Notes under the pieces: generated by a model
What the model was told of the DNA's origin: nothing
Database searches by the model: none
Seen by the model: only the letters and a program-made list of their open reading frames with translations
Position numbers and translations under genes: made by a program
Part shown: positions 22,083-35,204 of the stretch, one piece after another
How positions within the stretch are numbered: the first letter of the stretch is position 1
Layout of the letters: every line of letters begins with the position of its first letter
Source: an uncultured Anaerolineales bacterium
GTDB taxonomy: Bacteria > Chloroflexota > Anaerolineae > Aggregatilineales > Aggregatilineaceae
Assembly (NCBI GenBank): GCA_937135955.1
Contig: CAKZOB010000020.1
Location: 1-64,000, forward strand
Length of the DNA: 64,000 nt
Direction of reading: 5' to 3'

Positions 22083-22262
22083 CTTTGCCCCACCCGCTGG
22101 CCCTCATCCCCCGGCCCCTTCGCCCGCGCTGCGGGCGAAGGGGAGCGCTCGTGCGACAGACAGCAAGTCCCCTCGCCCCGCGACGCAGTCGCGAGGGAGA
22201 GGGGATTGAGGGGTGAGGGGCAGCAGATGGCGGCAAATTGCCTGTCAACCTTTGCACACACC
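22083..22262 (-). repeat. Dispersed repeat family C, copy 2
   Basis: Reverse-orientation counterpart of 12977-13150. It contains two long imperfect palindromes: CCCTTCGCCCGCGCTGCGGGCGAAGGGG and the CCCTCGCCCC...GGGAGAGGGG block. A GACAGACAGCAAG linker joins them, and a tail with CAGCAG, GGCGGCAAATTGCC and TGTCA...TTTGCACAC follows. It lies in the 680-bp gap between the CheY-like gene and pyrB; 22263-22383 holds nothing I recognise. Confidence 0.72.
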
Positions 22263-24761: not shown

Positions 24762-26098
24762 GTCGCCGCGTCGTCCGTCAGGGAATGTTGACGCTGGCCG
24801 ACCTGTCCTATCGCCTGGCCCGCCCGTTGATCTTCCGCCTGAGCAGCGCTCAAGAGGCGCACGAGCGGATGCTGGCCGCTCTGCGCTGGGCCGATGGGCA
24901 GCGCTGGCTGATCCCCTTGCTGGGCCGTTTGCGCGGCCTGACTCTGCCGCCCGCGCCGGTGAGCGTAGGGGGTGTGGTGCTGGAAACGCCGCTGATCCTG
25001 GCCGCCGGTCTGGTGAAAGGCGACGGCTTCGCCAGCGAAGATGAAGCGCTGGCCGCGGTGAATGCAGGGCACAACATCATGCCCGGCTGGCGGAGCATAC
25101 CCGCCCTGATGGGCCTAGTGGAGTTCGGCTCGTTCACACGCTGGCCGCGTCTCGGCAACCCCGGCGTGGTGACCTGGCGCGACGTGCACACCCGCTCCAC
25201 CCAGAATCGCGTCGGACTGCGCAACCCCGGCGCGCGAGCGGCGGCGTTCTTCCTGGCGGGGCGGCGCGACCGGTTGCCGCGGCAGTTCGGGATCAATGTG
25301 GCGGTCAGTCCGGGCGTCAGCGACCCGCAACAGCAGACGGACGAGGTGCTGGAATCGCTGAGGGCGTTTCTGGCGGCGGGCGTGATCCCGACCTGGTTCA
25401 CGCTCAACCTGAGCTGCCCCAACACCGAAGACGACCCGCGCGGCCATCAGACGGCGGACGAAGCGCGGCAGGTATGCGGCGCGGCCATCGCCCTGCTGCA
25501 GGAAGCGGCGGGGGGCAGAGAGAGTATCACCGCAGAGGGCGCAGAGGACACAGAGAAGGCACAGAGAGACATTGCTTCGTCTTCTGTGCACTCTCCGCGC
25601 CTTGGCGTAGGGGCGTATGGCCATACGCTCCCACAAATCCCCTCGCCCCGCGACGCAGTCGCGAGGGAGAGGGGCGCAGGGGTAAGGGGCTTCTCTGAAC
25701 GACCTGCTGGACGAATCCCGCCCCTTTGGGTTAAAGTGGGGCCGAACCTGAGCGATGATCAATACCGGGCGCTGCTGCGCGTCTTTGCCGAAACAGGCGT
25801 GCGGGCGGTGGTGGCGACCAATACGCTACCCTGGCCCGCGCCGGACGATCCGACGTTGACGGCGGGCGTGGGCGGGGGGAGGTTGTTCGCCCGCGCCCTG
25901 GAAGTGGTGGCGTTGTTGCAGGCGGAGCGCGCCGCACACGGCCACCCCGTGGACGTGATCGCCTGCGGCGGGGTACAGGATGGCGCAACCTTCCGCTCCT
26001 TCGCCGCCCTGGGAATTGCTGTCATGCAATACTGGACAGCGCTGGTCTATCGCGGGCCGTTAGCCGGCGCGTTGATCGCCTGGGAGGGGGGGCTATGA
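24758..26098 (+). CDS. pyrD: Dihydroorotate dehydrogenase with an in-frame repeat-derived insertion
   Basis: 446 residues, against the usual 300-350. FMN enzyme oxidising dihydroorotate to orotate. Core motifs flank an insertion: ILAAGLVKGDG, GSFTRWPRLGNP, NRVGLRNPG, FGINVAVSPG, WFTLNLSCPNTEDDPRG (catalytic loop), then after the insertion LWVKVGPNLSDDQ, VVATNT, GGGRLFARALEVV and IACGGVQDG. Residues about 254-319 (DNA about 25517-25712) have no DHODH character; their DNA consists of intergenic repeat sequence. If folded as a surface loop the enzyme could work. The N-terminal helix is class 2-like, but class assignment is uncertain. Overlaps pyrC and pyrE (ATGA both sides). Confidence 0.85.
   Translation: MSRRVVRQGMLTLADLSYRLARPLIFRLSSAQEAHERMLAALRWADGQRWLIPLLGRLRGLTLPPAPVSVGGVVLETPLILAAGLVKGDGFASEDEALAAVNAGHNIMPGWRSIPALMGLVEFGSFTRWPRLGNPGVVTWRDVHTRSTQNRVGLRNPGARAAAFFLAGRRDRLPRQFGINVAVSPGVSDPQQQTDEVLESLRAFLAAGVIPTWFTLNLSCPNTEDDPRGHQTADEARQVCGAAIALLQEAAGGRESITAEGAEDTEKAQRDIASSSVHSPRLGVGAYGHTLPQIPSPRDAVARERGAGVRGFSERPAGRIPPLWVKVGPNLSDDQYRALLRVFAETGVRAVVATNTLPWPAPDDPTLTAGVGGGRLFARALEVVALLQAERAAHGHPVDVIACGGVQDGATFRSFAALGIAVMQYWTALVYRGPLAGALIAWEGGL
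25527..25695. repeat. Repeat DNA inside the pyrD coding sequence
   Basis: Three repeat types are stacked: CGCAGAGGGCGCAGAGGACA-type sequence at about 25527-25600 (as at 12893 and 49687); the perfect palindrome GCGTATGG-CCATACGC at 25613-25628 inside GTAGGGGCG...CTCCCAC; and a CCCCTCGCCCCGCGACGCAG...GAGGGAGAGGGG block at about 25638-25690, matching family C (13040-13075, 22170-22205). The reading frame stays open throughout. Confidence 0.82.
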
Positions 26099-26760
26099 AT
26101 ACAGCCAGTGCCATTCAGGTCGCCGTGGCGAGAGCTTTGCTCGATATTGGGGCGGTTGTCTTCACGCCGCACGCGCCGGTGACCTTCAAGTCTGGCATCA
26201 TCTCGCCCGTCTATGTGGACAATCGCCGTCTGCCCTTCTGGCCAGCCCAATGGGGCGCGGTGATTGACGCCTTCCGCCAGACCATCGAGGGGCAGAAGCT
26301 GGTTTTCGACGTGATCGCCGGTATCGAGACGGCGGGCATCCCTCATAGCGCTGCGCTGGCCTATGCGCTGAGGGTGCCATCCGTGTTTGTGCGCAAGCAA
26401 GCCAAAGATCACGGGCTGCGCAGCCGGGTAGAAGGGGGCGAGGTCGAGGGACGGCGTGTGCTGCTGGTCGAAGACCTGGTGACTACCGGCGGCAGCAGCC
26501 TGGCCGGTGTAGAGGCGCTGCGCGACGCCGGAGCGGTCGTCGAACATTGCCTGTGCATCACGTCCTACGGTTTCCCCGAAGCTGCCCGCGCCTTCGAAAC
26601 GGCGCGGGTGCGTCTGCACCCGCTGACTCCGTTTTCGGCAATTGTGATCGAAGCAGCACAGCGCGGCCTGTTCGGCGCAGACGAATTGAGCATTCTCGAA
26701 GCCTGGCTGCGCGATCCGCACGGTTGGCATCTGACATCACCTGAGGGAGGAGCGCGATGA
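26095..26760 (+). CDS. pyrE: Orotate phosphoribosyltransferase
   Basis: 221 residues. It forms orotidine-5'-phosphate from orotate and PRPP. The PRPP motif is VLLVEDLVTTGGSSLAGVEAL. FKSGIISPVYVDNRRL and DVIAGIETAGIPHSAALAYAL are typical upstream segments, followed by VFVRKQAKDHGLRSRVEGGEVEG, the flexible catalytic loop. The start overlaps the pyrD stop and the stop overlaps the pyrF start, each by 4 bases. Cytosolic dimer in the family. Confidence 0.95.
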   Translation: MNTASAIQVAVARALLDIGAVVFTPHAPVTFKSGIISPVYVDNRRLPFWPAQWGAVIDAFRQTIEGQKLVFDVIAGIETAGIPHSAALAYALRVPSVFVRKQAKDHGLRSRVEGGEVEGRRVLLVEDLVTTGGSSLAGVEALRDAGAVVEHCLCITSYGFPEAARAFETARVRLHPLTPFSAIVIEAAQRGLFGADELSILEAWLRDPHGWHLTSPEGGAR

Positions 26761-27560
26761 ACCCCGTTATCGAGAAGTACAACCGCCGCGTCGAGGCGGC
26801 TGATTCGCTGTTGTGTGTGGGGTTGGATAGCGACTACGACCGCCTGCCGCCACACTTCCAGCAAGAGGAACTGCCTCAGTTCGTCTTCAACCGCTGGATC
26901 ATCGAGCAAACACACCCCTTCGTCAGTGCCTACAAGCCCAACCTAGCCTTCTATGAGGCGCGCGGTGTCGAAGGGTGGCGTTCGCTCGAAGCGACCATGG
27001 AATACCTGCACAGCCATCACCCGGACATCCTGACTATCTGCGATGCCAAGCTGGCCGACATCGGCTCGACCAACCGCGGCTACGTGACTGCCCTCTTCGA
27101 TCGCCTGGGCTTCGATGCGGTGACGCTCAACCCCTACCTGGGTCAGGATGCCCTGGCCCCCTTCCTGGAGCGCGAGGACAAAGCGTGCATCCTGCTCTGC
27201 CGCACCTCCAACCCCGGCGCGGGTGAGTTCCAGGACCTGGCGGTGAACGGGAAACCATTGTGGTATCTGGTGGCGGAACACGTCAGCCAGGTGTGGAACA
27301 CGCGCGGCAACTGTATGCTCGTCGCCGGCGCGACCTACCCCGAAGAGCTGCGCCAGATTCGCGCCCTGGTCGGCGACAGCATGACTCTGCTGGTGCCCGG
27401 CATCGGGGCGCAGGGCGGCGACATCGAGCAGACGATCCTCGGCGGGGCCAACAGTCATGGGGGCGGGCTGATCGTCAGCGCGTCGCGGGCGGTCATCTTC
27501 GCCGACGATCCGGCCAGCGCGGCGCACTCTCTGCGCGACATTATGAACAGCTATCGTTGA
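26757..27560 (+). CDS. pyrF: Orotidine-5'-phosphate decarboxylase (type 2)
   Basis: 267 residues, the length of the longer type 2 subfamily. It converts OMP to UMP. LLCVGLDSDYDRLP is the N-terminal strand. The catalytic lysine-aspartate pair is in CDAKLADIGSTNRGY. LVPGIGAQGGDIEQT and GGLIVSASRAVIFADDP form the phosphate-binding end. It overlaps pyrE by 4 bases and closes the set of five sequential pyr genes. The HAD phosphatase gene follows after 18 bp. Confidence 0.95.
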   Translation: MNPVIEKYNRRVEAADSLLCVGLDSDYDRLPPHFQQEELPQFVFNRWIIEQTHPFVSAYKPNLAFYEARGVEGWRSLEATMEYLHSHHPDILTICDAKLADIGSTNRGYVTALFDRLGFDAVTLNPYLGQDALAPFLEREDKACILLCRTSNPGAGEFQDLAVNGKPLWYLVAEHVSQVWNTRGNCMLVAGATYPEELRQIRALVGDSMTLLVPGIGAQGGDIEQTILGGANSHGGGLIVSASRAVIFADDPASAAHSLRDIMNSYR

Positions 27561-27578
27561 CGCAACCCTGGAGACCCT

Positions 27579-28235
27579 GTGACCATGATTGAAGCCGTCG
27601 TGTTCGACATGGACGGGCTGCTCGTGGATTCCGAGCCGCTCTGGCAGCGCGCGCGCATCGAAGCCTTCGGGGCCGACCGGCTGCGCTGGACGGAGGCCGA
27701 TCAGAAGCGCGTGATGGGCAGCAGCACCCTGGCCTGGGCCAGACAGATACAGGAGAAAATCGGTGACTCCCATACCCTGGAGGAGATCATCGAACGAGTG
27801 CTGGCGCAGATGGTGACGCTCTATCGCCAGGGCGTGCCGCTGATGCCCGGCGCAAAAGAGATCGTAGACCTGCTGCGCGGACGCTATCCGCTGGGGCTGG
27901 CGTCGGGGTCGCCTTACCGCCTGATCGAGGCTGTGCTGCAGGAGACGGGATGGGATGGCGCGTTCGGCTACGTGCTCTCCACCGACGATCTGCCGCGCGG
28001 CAAGCCCGCGCCCGACATCTACCTGGCCATTGCGCAGCGAATGGGCGTGCCCACCGAGCGGATTGCCGTCTTCGAGGACTCGCCCAACGGCATCCTGGCG
28101 GCGCTGGACGCTGGTTGCAAGGTGATCGCCGTGCCCGGCCACGATCAGCCCACACAGCCCGATCTGCTGCGGCGGGCGAGCCTGGTGCTCGGCTCGCTGC
28201 GCGATTTCCGCCTGGAGATGCTCGCAGGGCTGTAA
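27579..28235 (+). CDS. HAD-superfamily phosphatase (beta-phosphoglucomutase-like subfamily)
   Basis: 218 residues. The nucleophile motif DMDGLLVDSEPLW is at the N-terminus, followed by a helical cap (about 18-85). Motif II is in LGLASGSPYRLIEAVLQ, the motif III lysine in RGKPAPDIYLAIAQRMGV, and the motif IV acids in IAVFEDSPNGILAAL. It dephosphorylates a small metabolite, most likely a sugar phosphate or nucleotide; the cap residues do not decide. A GGAG site lies 5 bases before GTG 27579 (ATG 27585 is the alternative). It is 18 bp behind pyrF and could be the last gene of the operon. Confidence 0.88.
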   Translation: MTMIEAVVFDMDGLLVDSEPLWQRARIEAFGADRLRWTEADQKRVMGSSTLAWARQIQEKIGDSHTLEEIIERVLAQMVTLYRQGVPLMPGAKEIVDLLRGRYPLGLASGSPYRLIEAVLQETGWDGAFGYVLSTDDLPRGKPAPDIYLAIAQRMGVPTERIAVFEDSPNGILAALDAGCKVIAVPGHDQPTQPDLLRRASLVLGSLRDFRLEMLAGL

Positions 28236-30938: not shown

Positions 30939-30967
30939 TTGACATTGATTCACCCTGGTCTTAAAAT
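30939..30967 (+). promoter_or_regulatory. Strong promoter of the ribose-type ABC importer operon
   Basis: Perfect TTGACA (30939-30944), 17 bases, TAAAAT (30962-30967). It lies in an A/T-rich stretch in the 413-bp gap and leaves an about 230-base untranslated leader before 31207. I see no defined riboswitch in the leader; short GC-rich stems around 31140-31200 are possible. Confidence 0.78.
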
Positions 30968-31206: not shown

Positions 31207-32268
31207 ATGAATGTTTCAAGCGCTCTCACCAAATACCGTGCAACGCTACGTGAGTTGCAAACCCGGACGCCAGGTTTCCTGCGCGCTCGCGAGGTACCTA
31301 TCGCGCTGGTATTTCTGGTCCTGTGTTTCTACTTCTGGCAGGAAAAGCCCAATATCTTTCTACGACCTGCCAACCTGGCGGTCATCATGCGCTTCGTGGC
31401 CACCTATGGCCTGTTGGCCATTGGGGAGCTGCTGGTCATTCTCACCCGCGGCATTGATCTCTCGGTTGGCTCGATGACGGCATTGACGGGCGTCCTGGTA
31501 GCGACCCTGATGATGAAAGGATTCGATGCCATCCCCCCCTTCAACAACGTATTGCCCGATCTGTCGCCAATGGGCATGTGGGCGGCTATCGTCCTGGTTT
31601 TGGCTTTCAGCGCCCTGGTTGGCATCTGGCATGGGCTATTCGTCACCAAGTTTCATATCCCACCCTTCATCATCACGCTGGGCACCTGGCTGATGGCCAG
31701 CGGTGCGGCGGCGTACATCACCCGTGGCTATCCCATCGTCTTCCCCTCAGGTTTTGCCTTTCTGGAGCTTGGCCAGGGCGAGCAGGAGGTGCTGGGATAT
31801 AGTATCCCCAATATGTTCATCATCTTGCTCCTCGTGGCGGCGGTCGTGGCCTTCATCCTCAACATGACCACCCTGGGCCGACACATATATGCCATCGGGG
31901 GAGACATCGAGGCCGCCCGCGTCTCTGGCGTCAAGGTAGATCGGGTGCGTATCTTCTGCTACGCCGGCAGTGGTATGTTGGGCGGCCTGGTAGGTATTCT
32001 GCTGGCTTCGCGATTGGGCCAGGGCACACCTGCTGTAGGCACAGCTTACGAGTTGTGGGCCATTGCCGCTACCGTCATTGGCGGCACGAGCCTTTTCGGC
32101 GGCGAGGGCACGGTGTTGGGCGTCATCCTGGGGGCGGCCATCATGGGCGTCATGTCCAACGGGATGGTCTTGCTCAACGTATCGTCTTACCTGCAACAGG
32201 TGGTGCTGGGCGTTGTCCTCGTCATCGCCGTAACCTGGGATATGTGGCGGCGTCGCCGCGCTGGTTGA
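31207..32268 (+). CDS. Sugar ABC transporter permease (RbsC/XylH/FrcC family)
   Basis: 353 residues, about 8-10 membrane helices. Characteristic segments are [108 protein letters not shown] (the EAA-like coupling region) and [35 protein letters not shown]. It forms the channel of a CUT2-type importer with the ATPase and the tandem binding protein that follow. Order permease-ATPase-receptor, 18 and 83 bp apart. The promoter at 30939 drives it. Confidence 0.95.
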
Positions 32269-32286: not shown

Positions 32287-33096
32287 ATGGCTATGGCAGA
32301 GCAGACTCCCATAGTGGAAATGCAAAATATCAAGAAGCACTTCGGGGCCGTACAGGCTTTGCGGGGAGTAGACCTGACCCTATATCCTGGCGAAGTGCTG
32401 GGATTGGTGGGCGATAACGCCGCGGGCAAGTCCACGTTGATGAAAGTCCTCAGCGGGGCATACCTTCCCGATGAAGGGCAGATCTTCATTAAGGGCAAGA
32501 AGGCGCATATCACCAACCCCGAAGACTCGCGCCGGCTGGGCATTGAGATGGTCTATCAGGACTTCGCGCTGGCGGGCAACCTGGACGTGGCCGCCAATAT
32601 CTTCCTGGGGCGTGAGATCGTGCGCTGGGGGCTTGGCCCCATCCGCGTCATGAACAAACGCGCGATGGAAGAGCAGTCGCGCAACCTGGTTGACCGTCTC
32701 AAGATTGACATCAGTTCGGTACGCCTCAAGGTTGACAGGCTGTCCGGCGGTCAGCGGCAGGCAGTGGCTATCGGGCGCGCCACAGCGTTCGACGCCAAGG
32801 TCATCATCATGGACGAGCCAACTGCTGCGCTAAGCGTAGCGGCCATCAGCAAGGTGCTGGATCTGATCCGCGAACTGAAAGCGCAGGGGTGTAGCGTCAT
32901 TCTCATCAGTCACCGGCTGGAAGATATCTACGCCGTATCCGACCGGGTCATCGTCCTGCGCCAGGGACGTAAGGTAGCAGACCGACCGGTCAGCGGCAAC
33001 ATTCACGAGTTCCGCGAAAACATTGTCGCTTACATGGTGGGCGCTAAAAACGATTTCTCTCAAGAGAGTGAAGAGACACTGGCCGAAAGGGGGTGA
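32287..33096 (+). CDS. Sugar ABC transporter ATP-binding protein (single nucleotide-binding domain, FrcA-like)
   Basis: 269 residues. Walker [11 protein letters not shown]-loop [12 protein letters not shown], signature [14 protein letters not shown], Walker [13 protein letters not shown] and switch histidine in ILISHRLED. It has one ATPase domain only, unlike the duplicated RbsA/XylG type, and resembles the short FrcA/XylG-like proteins. Two of these should dimerise under the permease dimer. ATG at 32287 or 32293, both close to GAAGGGA. Confidence 0.95.
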
Positions 33097-33179: not shown

Positions 33180-35147
33180 ATGAAACGCCTTAGCCTATTG
33201 CTGATTCTGATCCTGACTCTACTACCCCTGACCATAGGTCAGACCTCGGCCCAGGAAAACTTCAAGGTAGTGGTGATTGGCAAGTCGGTGCACCCCTATT
33301 GGAGCAACGTCGAGATGGGGGTGCGCGCGGCAGCCAAAGACCTGGGGCTGCGCGATGACCAGGTGGTCTTCTGGGTGCCGCCGCGCGAGGATGTGGCCGC
33401 ACAAATCCAGACGATGGAGACCTACATCGCCGAAGGGGTGACGGGCATCGCCATCGCGCCCTCCGACCCCAACGCCCTGGAGCCGGTGATGAAGAAAGCC
33501 GCCGATGCGGGCATCATCGTCACCACCCTGGACACCCCGCCGGTGGAGGGGTCGGTCTCGCTGGTGTACATCGGCACCGACAACTATGCCGCGGGCTTCA
33601 TCGCCGGGCAGGAGATGGCCAAGCTGCTGCCTGAAGGTGGTGTGGTGGGCATCGGGCGCGGCTCAGACACCGCCCTCAACGCCCTGCAGCGCACCGATGG
33701 CTTCCTGGCCGCCCTGGAAGGCACCAACATCACCGCCCTGGAACCGGTCAATGACCGCGAGGACGCCGCCCGCGCCCTCGAACTGGCCAACTCGGTGCTG
33801 TCGGCCAACCCCGAACTGGATGGCGCTTTCGGCGTGTACGCCTACAACGGCCCCGCCTGGGCCACCGCCATCAAGGAAGCCGGTCGCGTGGGCAAGACCA
33901 AGCTGGTCTGCTTCGACGCCACCACCGACATCATCAACGGCATCAAGGAGGGCGTGATCAATGCCACCGTAGCCCAGCGCGAGTACGACATGGGCTACAA
34001 GTCGGTCGAGCTGATCTTCCGCATCGTCACCGAGGGGCAGGAAGCCGCCTTCGCCAAGATGGGCGTGGTGAACGGCGTGATTGACACCGGTGTGGACGTG
34101 ATCACCGCCGCCACCCTCAAGGACTACGAGGCCGCGCTCGACGCCAAGGGCATCCCGCACGAGTGGACTACCGAAGGCTGGACGCCGCCTGTCGTGGCAG
34201 CGCCAGAAGACTTCAAGGTAGTGGTGATTGGCAAGTCGGTGCACCCCTATTGGAGCAACGTCGAGATGGGGGTGCGCGCGGCAGCCAAAGACCTGGGGCT
34301 GCGCGATGACCAGGTGGTCTTCTGGGTGCCGCCGCGCGAGGATGTGGCCGCACAAATCCAGACGATGGAGACCTACATCGCCGAAGGGGTGACGGGCATC
34401 GCCATCGCGCCCTCCGACCCCAACGCCCTGGAGCCGGTGATGAAGAAAGCCGCCGATGCGGGCATCATCGTCACCACCCTGGACACCCCGCCGGTGGAGG
34501 GGTCGGTCTCGCTGGTGTACATCGGCACCGACAACTATGCCGCGGGCTTCATCGCCGGGCAGGAGATGGCCAAGCTGCTGCCTGAAGGTGGTGTGGTGGG
34601 CATCGGGCGCGGCTCAGACACCGCCCTCAACGCCCTGCAGCGCACCGATGGCTTCCTGGCCGCCCTGGAAGGCACCAACATCACCGCCCTGGAACCGGTC
34701 AATGACCGCGAGGACGCCGCCCGCGCCCTCGAACTGGCCAACTCGGTGCTGTCGGCCAACCCCGAACTGGATGGCGCTTTCGGCGTGTACGCCTACAACG
34801 GCCCCGCCTGGGCCACCGCCATCAAGGAAGCCGGTCGCGTGGGCAAGACCAAGCTGGTCTGCTTCGACGCCACCACCGACATCATCAACGGCATCAAGGA
34901 GGGCGTGATCAATGCCACCGTAGCCCAGCGCGAGTACGACATGGGCTACAAGTCGGTCGAGCTGATCTTCCGCATCGTCACCGAGGGGCAGGAAGCCGCC
35001 TTCGCCAAGATGGGCGTGGTGAACGGCGTGATTGACACCGGTGTGGACGTGATCACCGCCGCCACCCTCAAGGACTACGAGGCCGCGCTCGACGCCAAGG
35101 GCATCCCGCACGAGTGGACTACCGAAGGCTGGGAACCGCCGCAATAG
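33180..35147 (+). CDS. Tandem-duplicated periplasmic sugar-binding protein (two fused RbsB-type receptors)
   Basis: 655 residues, twice the normal size. A signal peptide (1-24, ending TSA|QE) precedes copy 1 (residues 28-334), a 10-residue linker (TPPVVAAPED, 335-344) and copy 2 (345-651). The two 307-residue copies are identical wherever I compared them, including on the DNA level (33261-34181 and 34212-35132, period 951 bp). Each is a complete type 1 periplasmic-binding fold: FKVVVIGKSVHPYW, IAPSDPNALEPVMKKA, LDTPP, ITALEPVNDREDAARALELA, YNGPAWATAIKEA and LVCFDATTDIINGIKEG. It delivers sugar to the permease/ATPase upstream. A terminator follows at 35170. Confidence 0.92.
   Translation: MKRLSLLLILILTLLPLTIGQTSAQENFKVVVIGKSVHPYWSNVEMGVRAAAKDLGLRDDQVVFWVPPREDVAAQIQTMETYIAEGVTGIAIAPSDPNALEPVMKKAADAGIIVTTLDTPPVEGSVSLVYIGTDNYAAGFIAGQEMAKLLPEGGVVGIGRGSDTALNALQRTDGFLAALEGTNITALEPVNDREDAARALELANSVLSANPELDGAFGVYAYNGPAWATAIKEAGRVGKTKLVCFDATTDIINGIKEGVINATVAQREYDMGYKSVELIFRIVTEGQEAAFAKMGVVNGVIDTGVDVITAATLKDYEAALDAKGIPHEWTTEGWTPPVVAAPEDFKVVVIGKSVHPYWSNVEMGVRAAAKDLGLRDDQVVFWVPPREDVAAQIQTMETYIAEGVTGIAIAPSDPNALEPVMKKAADAGIIVTTLDTPPVEGSVSLVYIGTDNYAAGFIAGQEMAKLLPEGGVVGIGRGSDTALNALQRTDGFLAALEGTNITALEPVNDREDAARALELANSVLSANPELDGAFGVYAYNGPAWATAIKEAGRVGKTKLVCFDATTDIINGIKEGVINATVAQREYDMGYKSVELIFRIVTEGQEAAFAKMGVVNGVIDTGVDVITAATLKDYEAALDAKGIPHEWTTEGWEPPQ
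33261..35132 (+). repeat. 921-bp tandem direct repeat inside the binding-protein gene
   Basis: Unit 1 is 33261-34181 and unit 2 is 34212-35132, separated by 30 bp. Line-by-line comparison found no difference; even the translations of unused frames are identical. Unit plus spacer is 951 bp = 317 codons, so the frame is kept. Confidence 0.93.
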
Positions 35148-35169
35148 AATCACCCGTTCAGATAAACTG

Positions 35170-35204
35170 TGGGGCCAGTTCTACCTGGCCCCATTCGTTT
35201 TCTT
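35170..35204 (+). terminator. Rho-independent terminator of the sugar importer operon
   Basis: TGGGGCCAG (35170-35178) pairs with CTGGCCCCA (35185-35193), loop TTCTAC, followed by TTCGTTTTCTT. It is 23 bp after the binding-protein stop. Confidence 0.88.

What the first reader, a model, noticed from the sequence alone, without database searches (positions are those of the whole stretch)
33180..35147. Binding protein made of two apparently identical 307-residue receptors
921 bp are repeated with no difference that I could find, in frame, joined by a 10-residue proline/alanine linker. Fused receptors exist in some ABC systems, but a perfect copy implies a very recent duplication, active gene conversion or an assembly error. 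If real, each secreted molecule carries two ligand sites for one permease, which could raise local receptor concentration.
Basis: seen in the sequence. Interest (0 to 1): 0.72.

Follow-up and report, generated by a model that had tools for sequence, protein, structure and literature searches.

The report
Twin sugar receptor with self-copying halves
A bacterial sugar importer has a receptor built from two copies of the same protein in one chain; about fifty such twin receptors turn up in related bacteria, and the two halves appear to keep overwriting each other's DNA so that they stay alike.

Summary
Window 33259-34181 is repeated exactly (923 bp) at 34210-35132, in one 655-aa ORF joined by a 10-residue linker. 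It is the last gene of a three-gene sugar ABC importer (permease, single-domain ATPase, receptor). Each half is a CUT2/Peripla_BP_4 receptor, 51% identical to Thermotoga maritima glucose-binding protein.

It is not a one-off, and an invented second unit is very unlikely because the junction is unique sequence. The same gene breaks, or carries a 100-N gap, at the repeat in at least four relatives' assemblies. About 50 other twin receptors from several receptor families occur in related Chloroflexota, including nine in a 5-contig genome of the same family and others in single-contig genomes. Linkers are conserved across species, yet the two halves of one gene are often more alike (88-100% nt) than orthologous halves of different species (64-91%), with converted centres and diverged ends. 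This is concerted evolution, best explained by gene conversion between two ancient halves, not by recent duplication.

Function is inferred: two equivalent sugar sites delivering to one permease, as in GlnPQ but not membrane-fused. Whether identity is exactly 100%, and the copy number exactly two, in this genome cannot be proved without reads.

The parts
30939..30967 (+). promoter-like site TTGACA-17-TAAAAT upstream of the importer operon
   Evidence: consensus scan, 11 of 12 matches; the number found does not exceed shuffles, so a suggestion only
31207..32268 (+). ABC importer permease, CUT2 type (BPD_transp_2), 353 aa
   Evidence: PF02653 E 4.5e-40; conserved next to the receptor in relatives at 60-76% identity
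32287..33096 (+). ABC importer ATPase, single-domain, 269 aa
   Evidence: PF00005 E 4e-30; best NCBIfam matches are the N-terminal halves of xylose/ribose ATPases; single-domain orthologues in L017 and L038, two-domain in others
33180..33254 (+). start and signal peptide MKRLSLLLILILTLLPLTIGQTSAQ; SPase I-like end, no lipobox cysteine
   Evidence: read from the translation; inference by eye
33255..34172 (+). receptor unit 1, Peripla_BP_4 sugar-binding protein
   Evidence: PF13407, two stretches in the protein, 1e-117; tmGBP 2h3h E 2e-89; exact repeat 33259-34181
34182..34209 (+). non-repeated linker/junction between the two exact repeats (TPPVVAAPED)
   Evidence: direct comparison; a linker of the same unit period in relative L017 (WQAPMAAVPEDF against WTPPVVAAPEDF)
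34206..35144 (+). receptor unit 2, identical to unit 1 over 923 bp (34210-35132)
35169..35194 (+). terminator-like hairpin (10 pairs) with T-rich tail just after the receptor stop
   Evidence: count not above shuffles, position fits the operon end

Best explanation
This is a covalent homo-tandem (twin) sugar receptor of a CUT2-type ABC importer. Two equal tmGBP-like domains are secreted as one chain, joined by a short flexible linker, and serve one permease/ATPase pair. The tandem is old. Its two halves are kept nearly identical by recurrent gene conversion (homologous recombination) between the direct repeats 951 bp apart, i.e. concerted evolution inside one gene, together with purifying selection on both halves. 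Shown here: the twin gene, its operon, the same architecture in many relatives, homologous linkers, and within-gene identity often exceeding between-species identity, with converted centres and diverged ends. Inferred: that both halves bind the same monosaccharide (glucose-like), that they dock in turn on one permease, and that the gain is a higher effective receptor concentration or avidity at the permease.
For: Exact 923-bp repeat with a unique junction. Same gene in relatives, broken by contig ends or 100-N gaps at the repeat with both units partly visible: L017, L025/L011, L024/L010, L029; G005 and G002 contigs also end inside the gene. Visible parts are about 98-99% identical within a gene away from the edges, while G000 and L017 units are only 79% identical (751/951), with 144 third-position differences in 317 codons against 3 between the two halves in G000. 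Two more twins in the same genome: C71 (99.8% nt, 874 bp exact) and C85 (87% overall but a 478-bp exact tract between diverged ends). About 50 twin ORFs in at least eight groups, including single-contig G276 and G542 and nine in 5-contig G011. Within exceeds best between for families A-C and six of 15 D members, and for groups F (3 of 3), I and G000/G011 D. Permutation tests for clustered identity p<=0.0015 for L004, L076, L077, L079, L094, L097, L113. In genus g35 the u1 and u2 clades are largely separate (u2 clade 100/99), but L113 u1/u2 are sisters at 100/99. u1/u2 dN about 0.1 against dS about 0.9 in old pairs. The Asp/Arg/Asp/Gln sugar contacts are invariant in both halves of 26 tandem proteins (residues from PMC2630998). 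Model: both halves pLDDT above 90, pTM 0.62.
Against: For this gene no reads are available; metagenome assemblers collapse small differences between near-identical copies, so exactly 100% and exactly two units are unproven. No finished relative carries the family-A twin itself; its orthologues come from fragmented assemblies. Nine of 15 family-D twins and group H have drifted apart and do not show within above between, so homogenisation is episodic. L113, a strong conversion case, has an N gap right after unit 2. Nothing was measured on binding, docking or transport; in GlnPQ the tandem had no effect on ligand affinity (PMC8025302).
Confidence: 0.78

Rival explanations
1. Very recent tandem duplication of a single-unit receptor gene in this lineage, with no time yet to diverge; no homogenising process.
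For: Perfect identity of the units; single-unit orthologues exist (L021, L023, L026, L027, L036, L039).
Against: L017 (79% nt away) has the tandem with the same 951-bp period and a matching linker; other families keep homologous linkers across genera while halves stay alike; mosaic genes with converted centres and old ends.
Confidence: 0.1
2. Assembly artefact: a single-unit gene assembled twice, or copies that differ collapsed to one sequence.
For: A 923-bp exact repeat is longer than short reads; assemblers broke at this gene in several relatives; collapsing of SNP bubbles could turn about 98% into 100%.
Against: The junction sequence is unique and in frame; twins with 86-98% nt halves in long-contig genomes G011, G276 and G542; visible second-unit pieces in four other assemblies of this gene.
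Confidence: 0.05
3. Homogenisation by unequal crossing-over (expansion to three units or contraction to one, then re-expansion) rather than gene conversion, so unit number varies in the population.
For: Direct tandem repeats about 0.9 kb long can also undergo this; it would give identical cores with distinct outer edges.
Against: About 50 twins and no gap-free three-unit ORF, including in long-contig genomes; conversion alone explains the fixed number of two.
Confidence: 0.2
4. The twin has no receptor advantage: a neutral duplication held alike by recombination.
For: Twins are a minority of receptors even in this genome (3 of about 24 Peripla_BP_4 ORFs); GlnPQ tandem domains bind independently of each other.
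Against: Both halves of old pairs are under purifying selection (dN/dS about 0.1); frame and linkers are kept across genera; many receptor families have it; about 23% of Peripla_BP_4 ORFs in this bacterial family are twins against about 1-2% in a truncated phylum-wide list.
Confidence: 0.15

Closest known systems
GlnPQ tandem substrate-binding domains (Lactococcus lactis; PMC8025302)
   Same: Two substrate-binding domains in tandem with a 14-residue linker serve one importer; domains act independently and compete for docking.
   Different: In GlnPQ the domains are fused to the membrane domain and differ in sequence and specificity; here the receptor is a separate secreted protein, both domains are sugar receptors and essentially identical.
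Thermotoga maritima glucose/xylose-binding protein (PDB 2h3h, 3c6q; CUT2 receptors)
   Same: 51% identity per half, same fold; Lys9 and Tyr190, the two glucose-contact residues named in PMC9601137, are conserved by alignment.
   Different: tmGBP is a single unit.
Concertedly evolving duplicate genes of prokaryotes (tuf, rRNA operons; PMC6053082, PMC5485169)
   Same: Copies in one genome resemble each other more than orthologues elsewhere, by gene conversion.
   Different: Those copies are separate genes; here both are halves of one reading frame. The passages read of the 26-gene survey (PMC6053082) name no ABC receptor.
Hybrid A-E tandem receptors found here (L015, L016, L018, L019, L020, L049, L050, L052)
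   Same: Same first unit fused in frame to a second receptor domain.
   Different: The second unit belongs to another receptor family (E, 66-77% to the E-E twins); where both sides are held, the gene lies between two complete ABC systems.

Membership tests
CUT2 / Peripla_BP_4 sugar receptors (PF13407) | profile match above the curated cut-off over each unit | tested here: met
   392.7 bits against 35.1, two stretches
CUT2 / Peripla_BP_4 sugar receptors (PF13407) | ribose-type ligand contacts Asp89, Arg141, Asp215, Gln235 present | tested here: met
   invariant D98/R151/D226/Q246 and D415/R468/D543/Q563 with the same spacing (reference residues)
CUT2 / Peripla_BP_4 sugar receptors (PF13407) | adjacent CUT2 permease and ATPase | tested here: met
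   the ATPase is single-domain, unlike the usual two-domain CUT2 ATPase
tmGBP-like glucose receptor | binds glucose or xylose | not testable with these tools
   51% identity and conserved Lys9/Tyr190 only
GlnPQ-type importer | tandem receptor domains fused to the permease | tested here: not met
   receptor and permease are separate ORFs
Concertedly evolving duplicates | within-genome identity exceeds between-species identity although the duplication is older than the split | tested here: met
   for the window gene itself it rests on one relative (L017) with partial units
Lipoprotein receptor (as in many other relatives) | lipobox cysteine at the signal peptide end | tested here: not met
   no Cys in MKRLSLLLILILTLLPLTIGQTSAQENF; relatives L021, L023, L029 and others have one
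Assembly artefact | junction explainable by joining ends of a single unit | tested here: not met
   unique junction

The most novel reading that the evidence does not exclude
A lineage of Chloroflexota has adopted twin receptors as a general design for monosaccharide uptake, applied independently to several receptor families, and keeps the two halves of each gene alike by continual intragenic gene conversion; partner exchange between families (A-A, E-E and A-E hybrids lying between two importers) makes single receptor molecules that can feed one or two transporters.
Probability: 0.5. Interest if true: 0.78.

Novelty: new variant of a known kind. Interest (0 to 1): 0.6.

Why it matters
Tandem receptor domains were known as permease fusions of unlike domains. 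A soluble receptor made of two matching halves, repeated in many receptor families of one bacterial lineage, turns the old question of why an importer would have more than one binding site into a clean comparison: natural one-unit, twin and hybrid forms of the same receptor exist side by side. It is also a ready-made system for studying gene conversion inside a reading frame, and it warns that metagenome assemblies lose or break such genes, so twin receptors are probably undercounted.

Tried and rejected
Assembly error as the whole explanation (unique junction, long-contig relatives). Chance similarity (923 bp exact). Twin architecture tied to loss of the lipid anchor: rejected, since family B twins and L029 have a lipobox while single L027 does not. 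Twin tied to a single-domain ATPase: rejected, relatives with two-domain ATPases also have twins. Twin state in the other big receptor family: none of 37 SBP_bac_1 matches in this genome lies twice in one frame. My first self-comparison script printed nothing because of its settings and was redone. The literature searches that ran on tandem, fused or duplicated receptors and related wording found GlnPQ-type domains but no description of twin soluble sugar receptors (for gene conversion); subscription papers are not covered.

Full report
Observation. The window holds a 655-aa ORF at 33180-35147 (+). Positions 33259-34181 and 34210-35132 are identical over 923 bp, offset 951 bp; no other exact repeat in the window is longer than 37 bp. 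The two units differ only at the edges: the DNA before unit 1 encodes the signal peptide end, the DNA before unit 2 is the linker, and the tails differ (WTPPVVAAPED against WEPPQ-stop). The junction is therefore unique sequence, which assembling a single-unit gene twice does not create.

What it is. Both halves match Peripla_BP_4 and are nearest to Thermotoga maritima glucose-binding protein: E 2e-89 by sequence, 51% identity in the fold search. The residues Lys9 and Tyr190 that contact glucose in tmGBP (PMC9601137) are conserved in the alignment. Upstream lie a CUT2 permease (31207-32268) and a single-domain ATPase (32287-33096); a terminator-like hairpin follows the receptor stop. The signal peptide lacks a lipobox. 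AlphaFold gives two confident domains (mean pLDDT 92) but pTM 0.62, as expected if the relative orientation is not fixed.

The same gene elsewhere. The closest relatives show the tandem although their assemblies break at it. L017 has unit 1, linker, the start of unit 2, a 100-N gap and the end of a unit. L025/L011 have the start of unit 1, a 100-N gap, the linker and a full unit 2. L024/L010 begin in unit 1 and run through the linker into a full unit 2. L029 has unit 1, linker and the start of unit 2 to the contig end. G005 and G002 contigs end inside the gene. Where two copies are visible they agree at 104/112 (with most differences in the first 17 bases), 130/133 and 142/144 positions, while the G000 and L017 units agree at 751/951. 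The L017 linker has the same length as that of G000 and similar sequence. Between G000 and L017 there are 144 third-position differences in 317 codons; between the two halves in G000 there are three. Other relatives have a single unit (L021, L023, L026, L027, L036, L039), and others a hybrid (below).

A general pattern. The same genome has two further twins in unrelated receptors: C71 (99.8% nt, 874 bp exact) and C85 (87% overall, but a 478-bp exact tract between ends of 60-75% identity). Searches with those units and the window unit across the class, and of relatives, gave about 50 twin ORFs in at least eight receptor groups. They include G276 and G542 (single contigs), and nine in G011, a 5-contig genome of the same bacterial family, with halves 86-98% identical. 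In that family 26 of about 114 strong Peripla_BP_4 ORFs are twins (my count), against 2 of about 140 among the best hits of a phylum sample (my count; truncated list, so the Fisher value of 4e-8 is only indicative). In this genome the other large receptor family has none.

Concerted evolution. Linkers are homologous across species: YIYTETPREP in G000 and G011; YTSNTSDPAPALDxSYNLAFVPGVN in ten g35 genomes; PPAYPPEDG in five group-E genomes; VPVYIPVDLRLVQKLTLG in group F. The tandem is thus old in each group. Yet halves of one gene are often more alike than orthologous halves: B 97-98.6% against 81-91%; C 88-100% against 60-68%; L138 96% against at most 86.5%; L145 99.5% against 85%; L004 89% against 77%. 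In genus g35, u1 and u2 mostly form separate clades, as after an old duplication, but the u1 and u2 of L113 are sisters with 100/99 support and share a 787-bp exact stretch; an assembly gap follows it, so this case carries a caveat. Clustering of identity beyond chance was found for L004, L076, L077, L079, L094, L097 and L113 (p<=0.0015), not for the fully drifted pairs. Old pairs have dN about 0.1 and dS about 0.9, so both halves are under selection. The order of events is: duplication, then purifying selection on both halves, then episodic conversion. The window gene is an instance caught soon after, or under continual, conversion.

Hybrids. In eight other loci the window-type unit is fused to a second unit that is not its twin but a member of group E (66-77% identical to E-E twins). 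In L015, L018, L019 and L020 the gene order is permease A, ATPase A (seen in three of the four), A-E receptor, ATPase E, permease E. A single receptor molecule there plausibly serves two importers. Within the window's family, A-A and E-E twins occur as separate genes (G006 carries both, 39 kb apart).

Mechanism. The closest measured system is GlnPQ, where tandem domains bind independently, compete for docking, and a longer linker slows transport (PMC8025302). By analogy the twin gives two equal sites per secreted chain near one permease. This is inference. Retention at the cell surface without a lipid anchor is a further possible gain; it was not supported as a general rule because some twins are lipoproteins and one carries a LysM-like N-terminus.

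Limits. No reads were available. Metagenome assemblers may hide small differences between copies, and the unit number in this genome is assumed. Family-A evidence comes from fragmented assemblies; finished genomes support the architecture through other receptor families.

Noticed in passing
L015, L018, L019, L020 (also L016, L030, L049, L050, L052): Hybrid receptor: window-type unit fused to a group-E receptor; where both flanks are held the gene sits between two complete ABC import systems.
   Followed up: partly
G000:C71:15591-17348 (L071) and G000:C85:8290-10092 (L070): Two further twin receptors in the same genome, one 99.8% identical between halves, one mosaic with a 478-bp exact core.
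   Followed up: yes
L080/L055 (G107:C85): Twin receptor preceded by a LysM-like stretch (YIIAKGDWLSKIAEKYLGN...), suggesting a cell-wall anchor; read by eye.
   Followed up: no
L153 (G542:C1, contig of 5258541 bp): Twin receptor (91.6% nt) in a single-contig genome whose size matches what I remember for Chloroflexus aurantiacus J-10-fl.
   Followed up: partly
G000:C19:25215-26144 and 26673-27602: Two adjacent, separate SBP_bac_1 receptor ORFs with identical family scores: perhaps a recent tandem gene duplication without fusion.
   Followed up: no
family D twins (L109-L118, L121-L125), unit nt about 750-825: One short stretch stays at 56-75% identity between halves in nearly all species while the rest is more alike: possibly a half-specific contact.
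   Followed up: no
L092, L093, L100: C-type receptor fused to an unrelated second receptor unit (about 26% identity): another hybrid tandem.
   Followed up: no
window 22168-22204 and 25638-25674: 37-bp exact direct repeat, unexplained.
   Followed up: no
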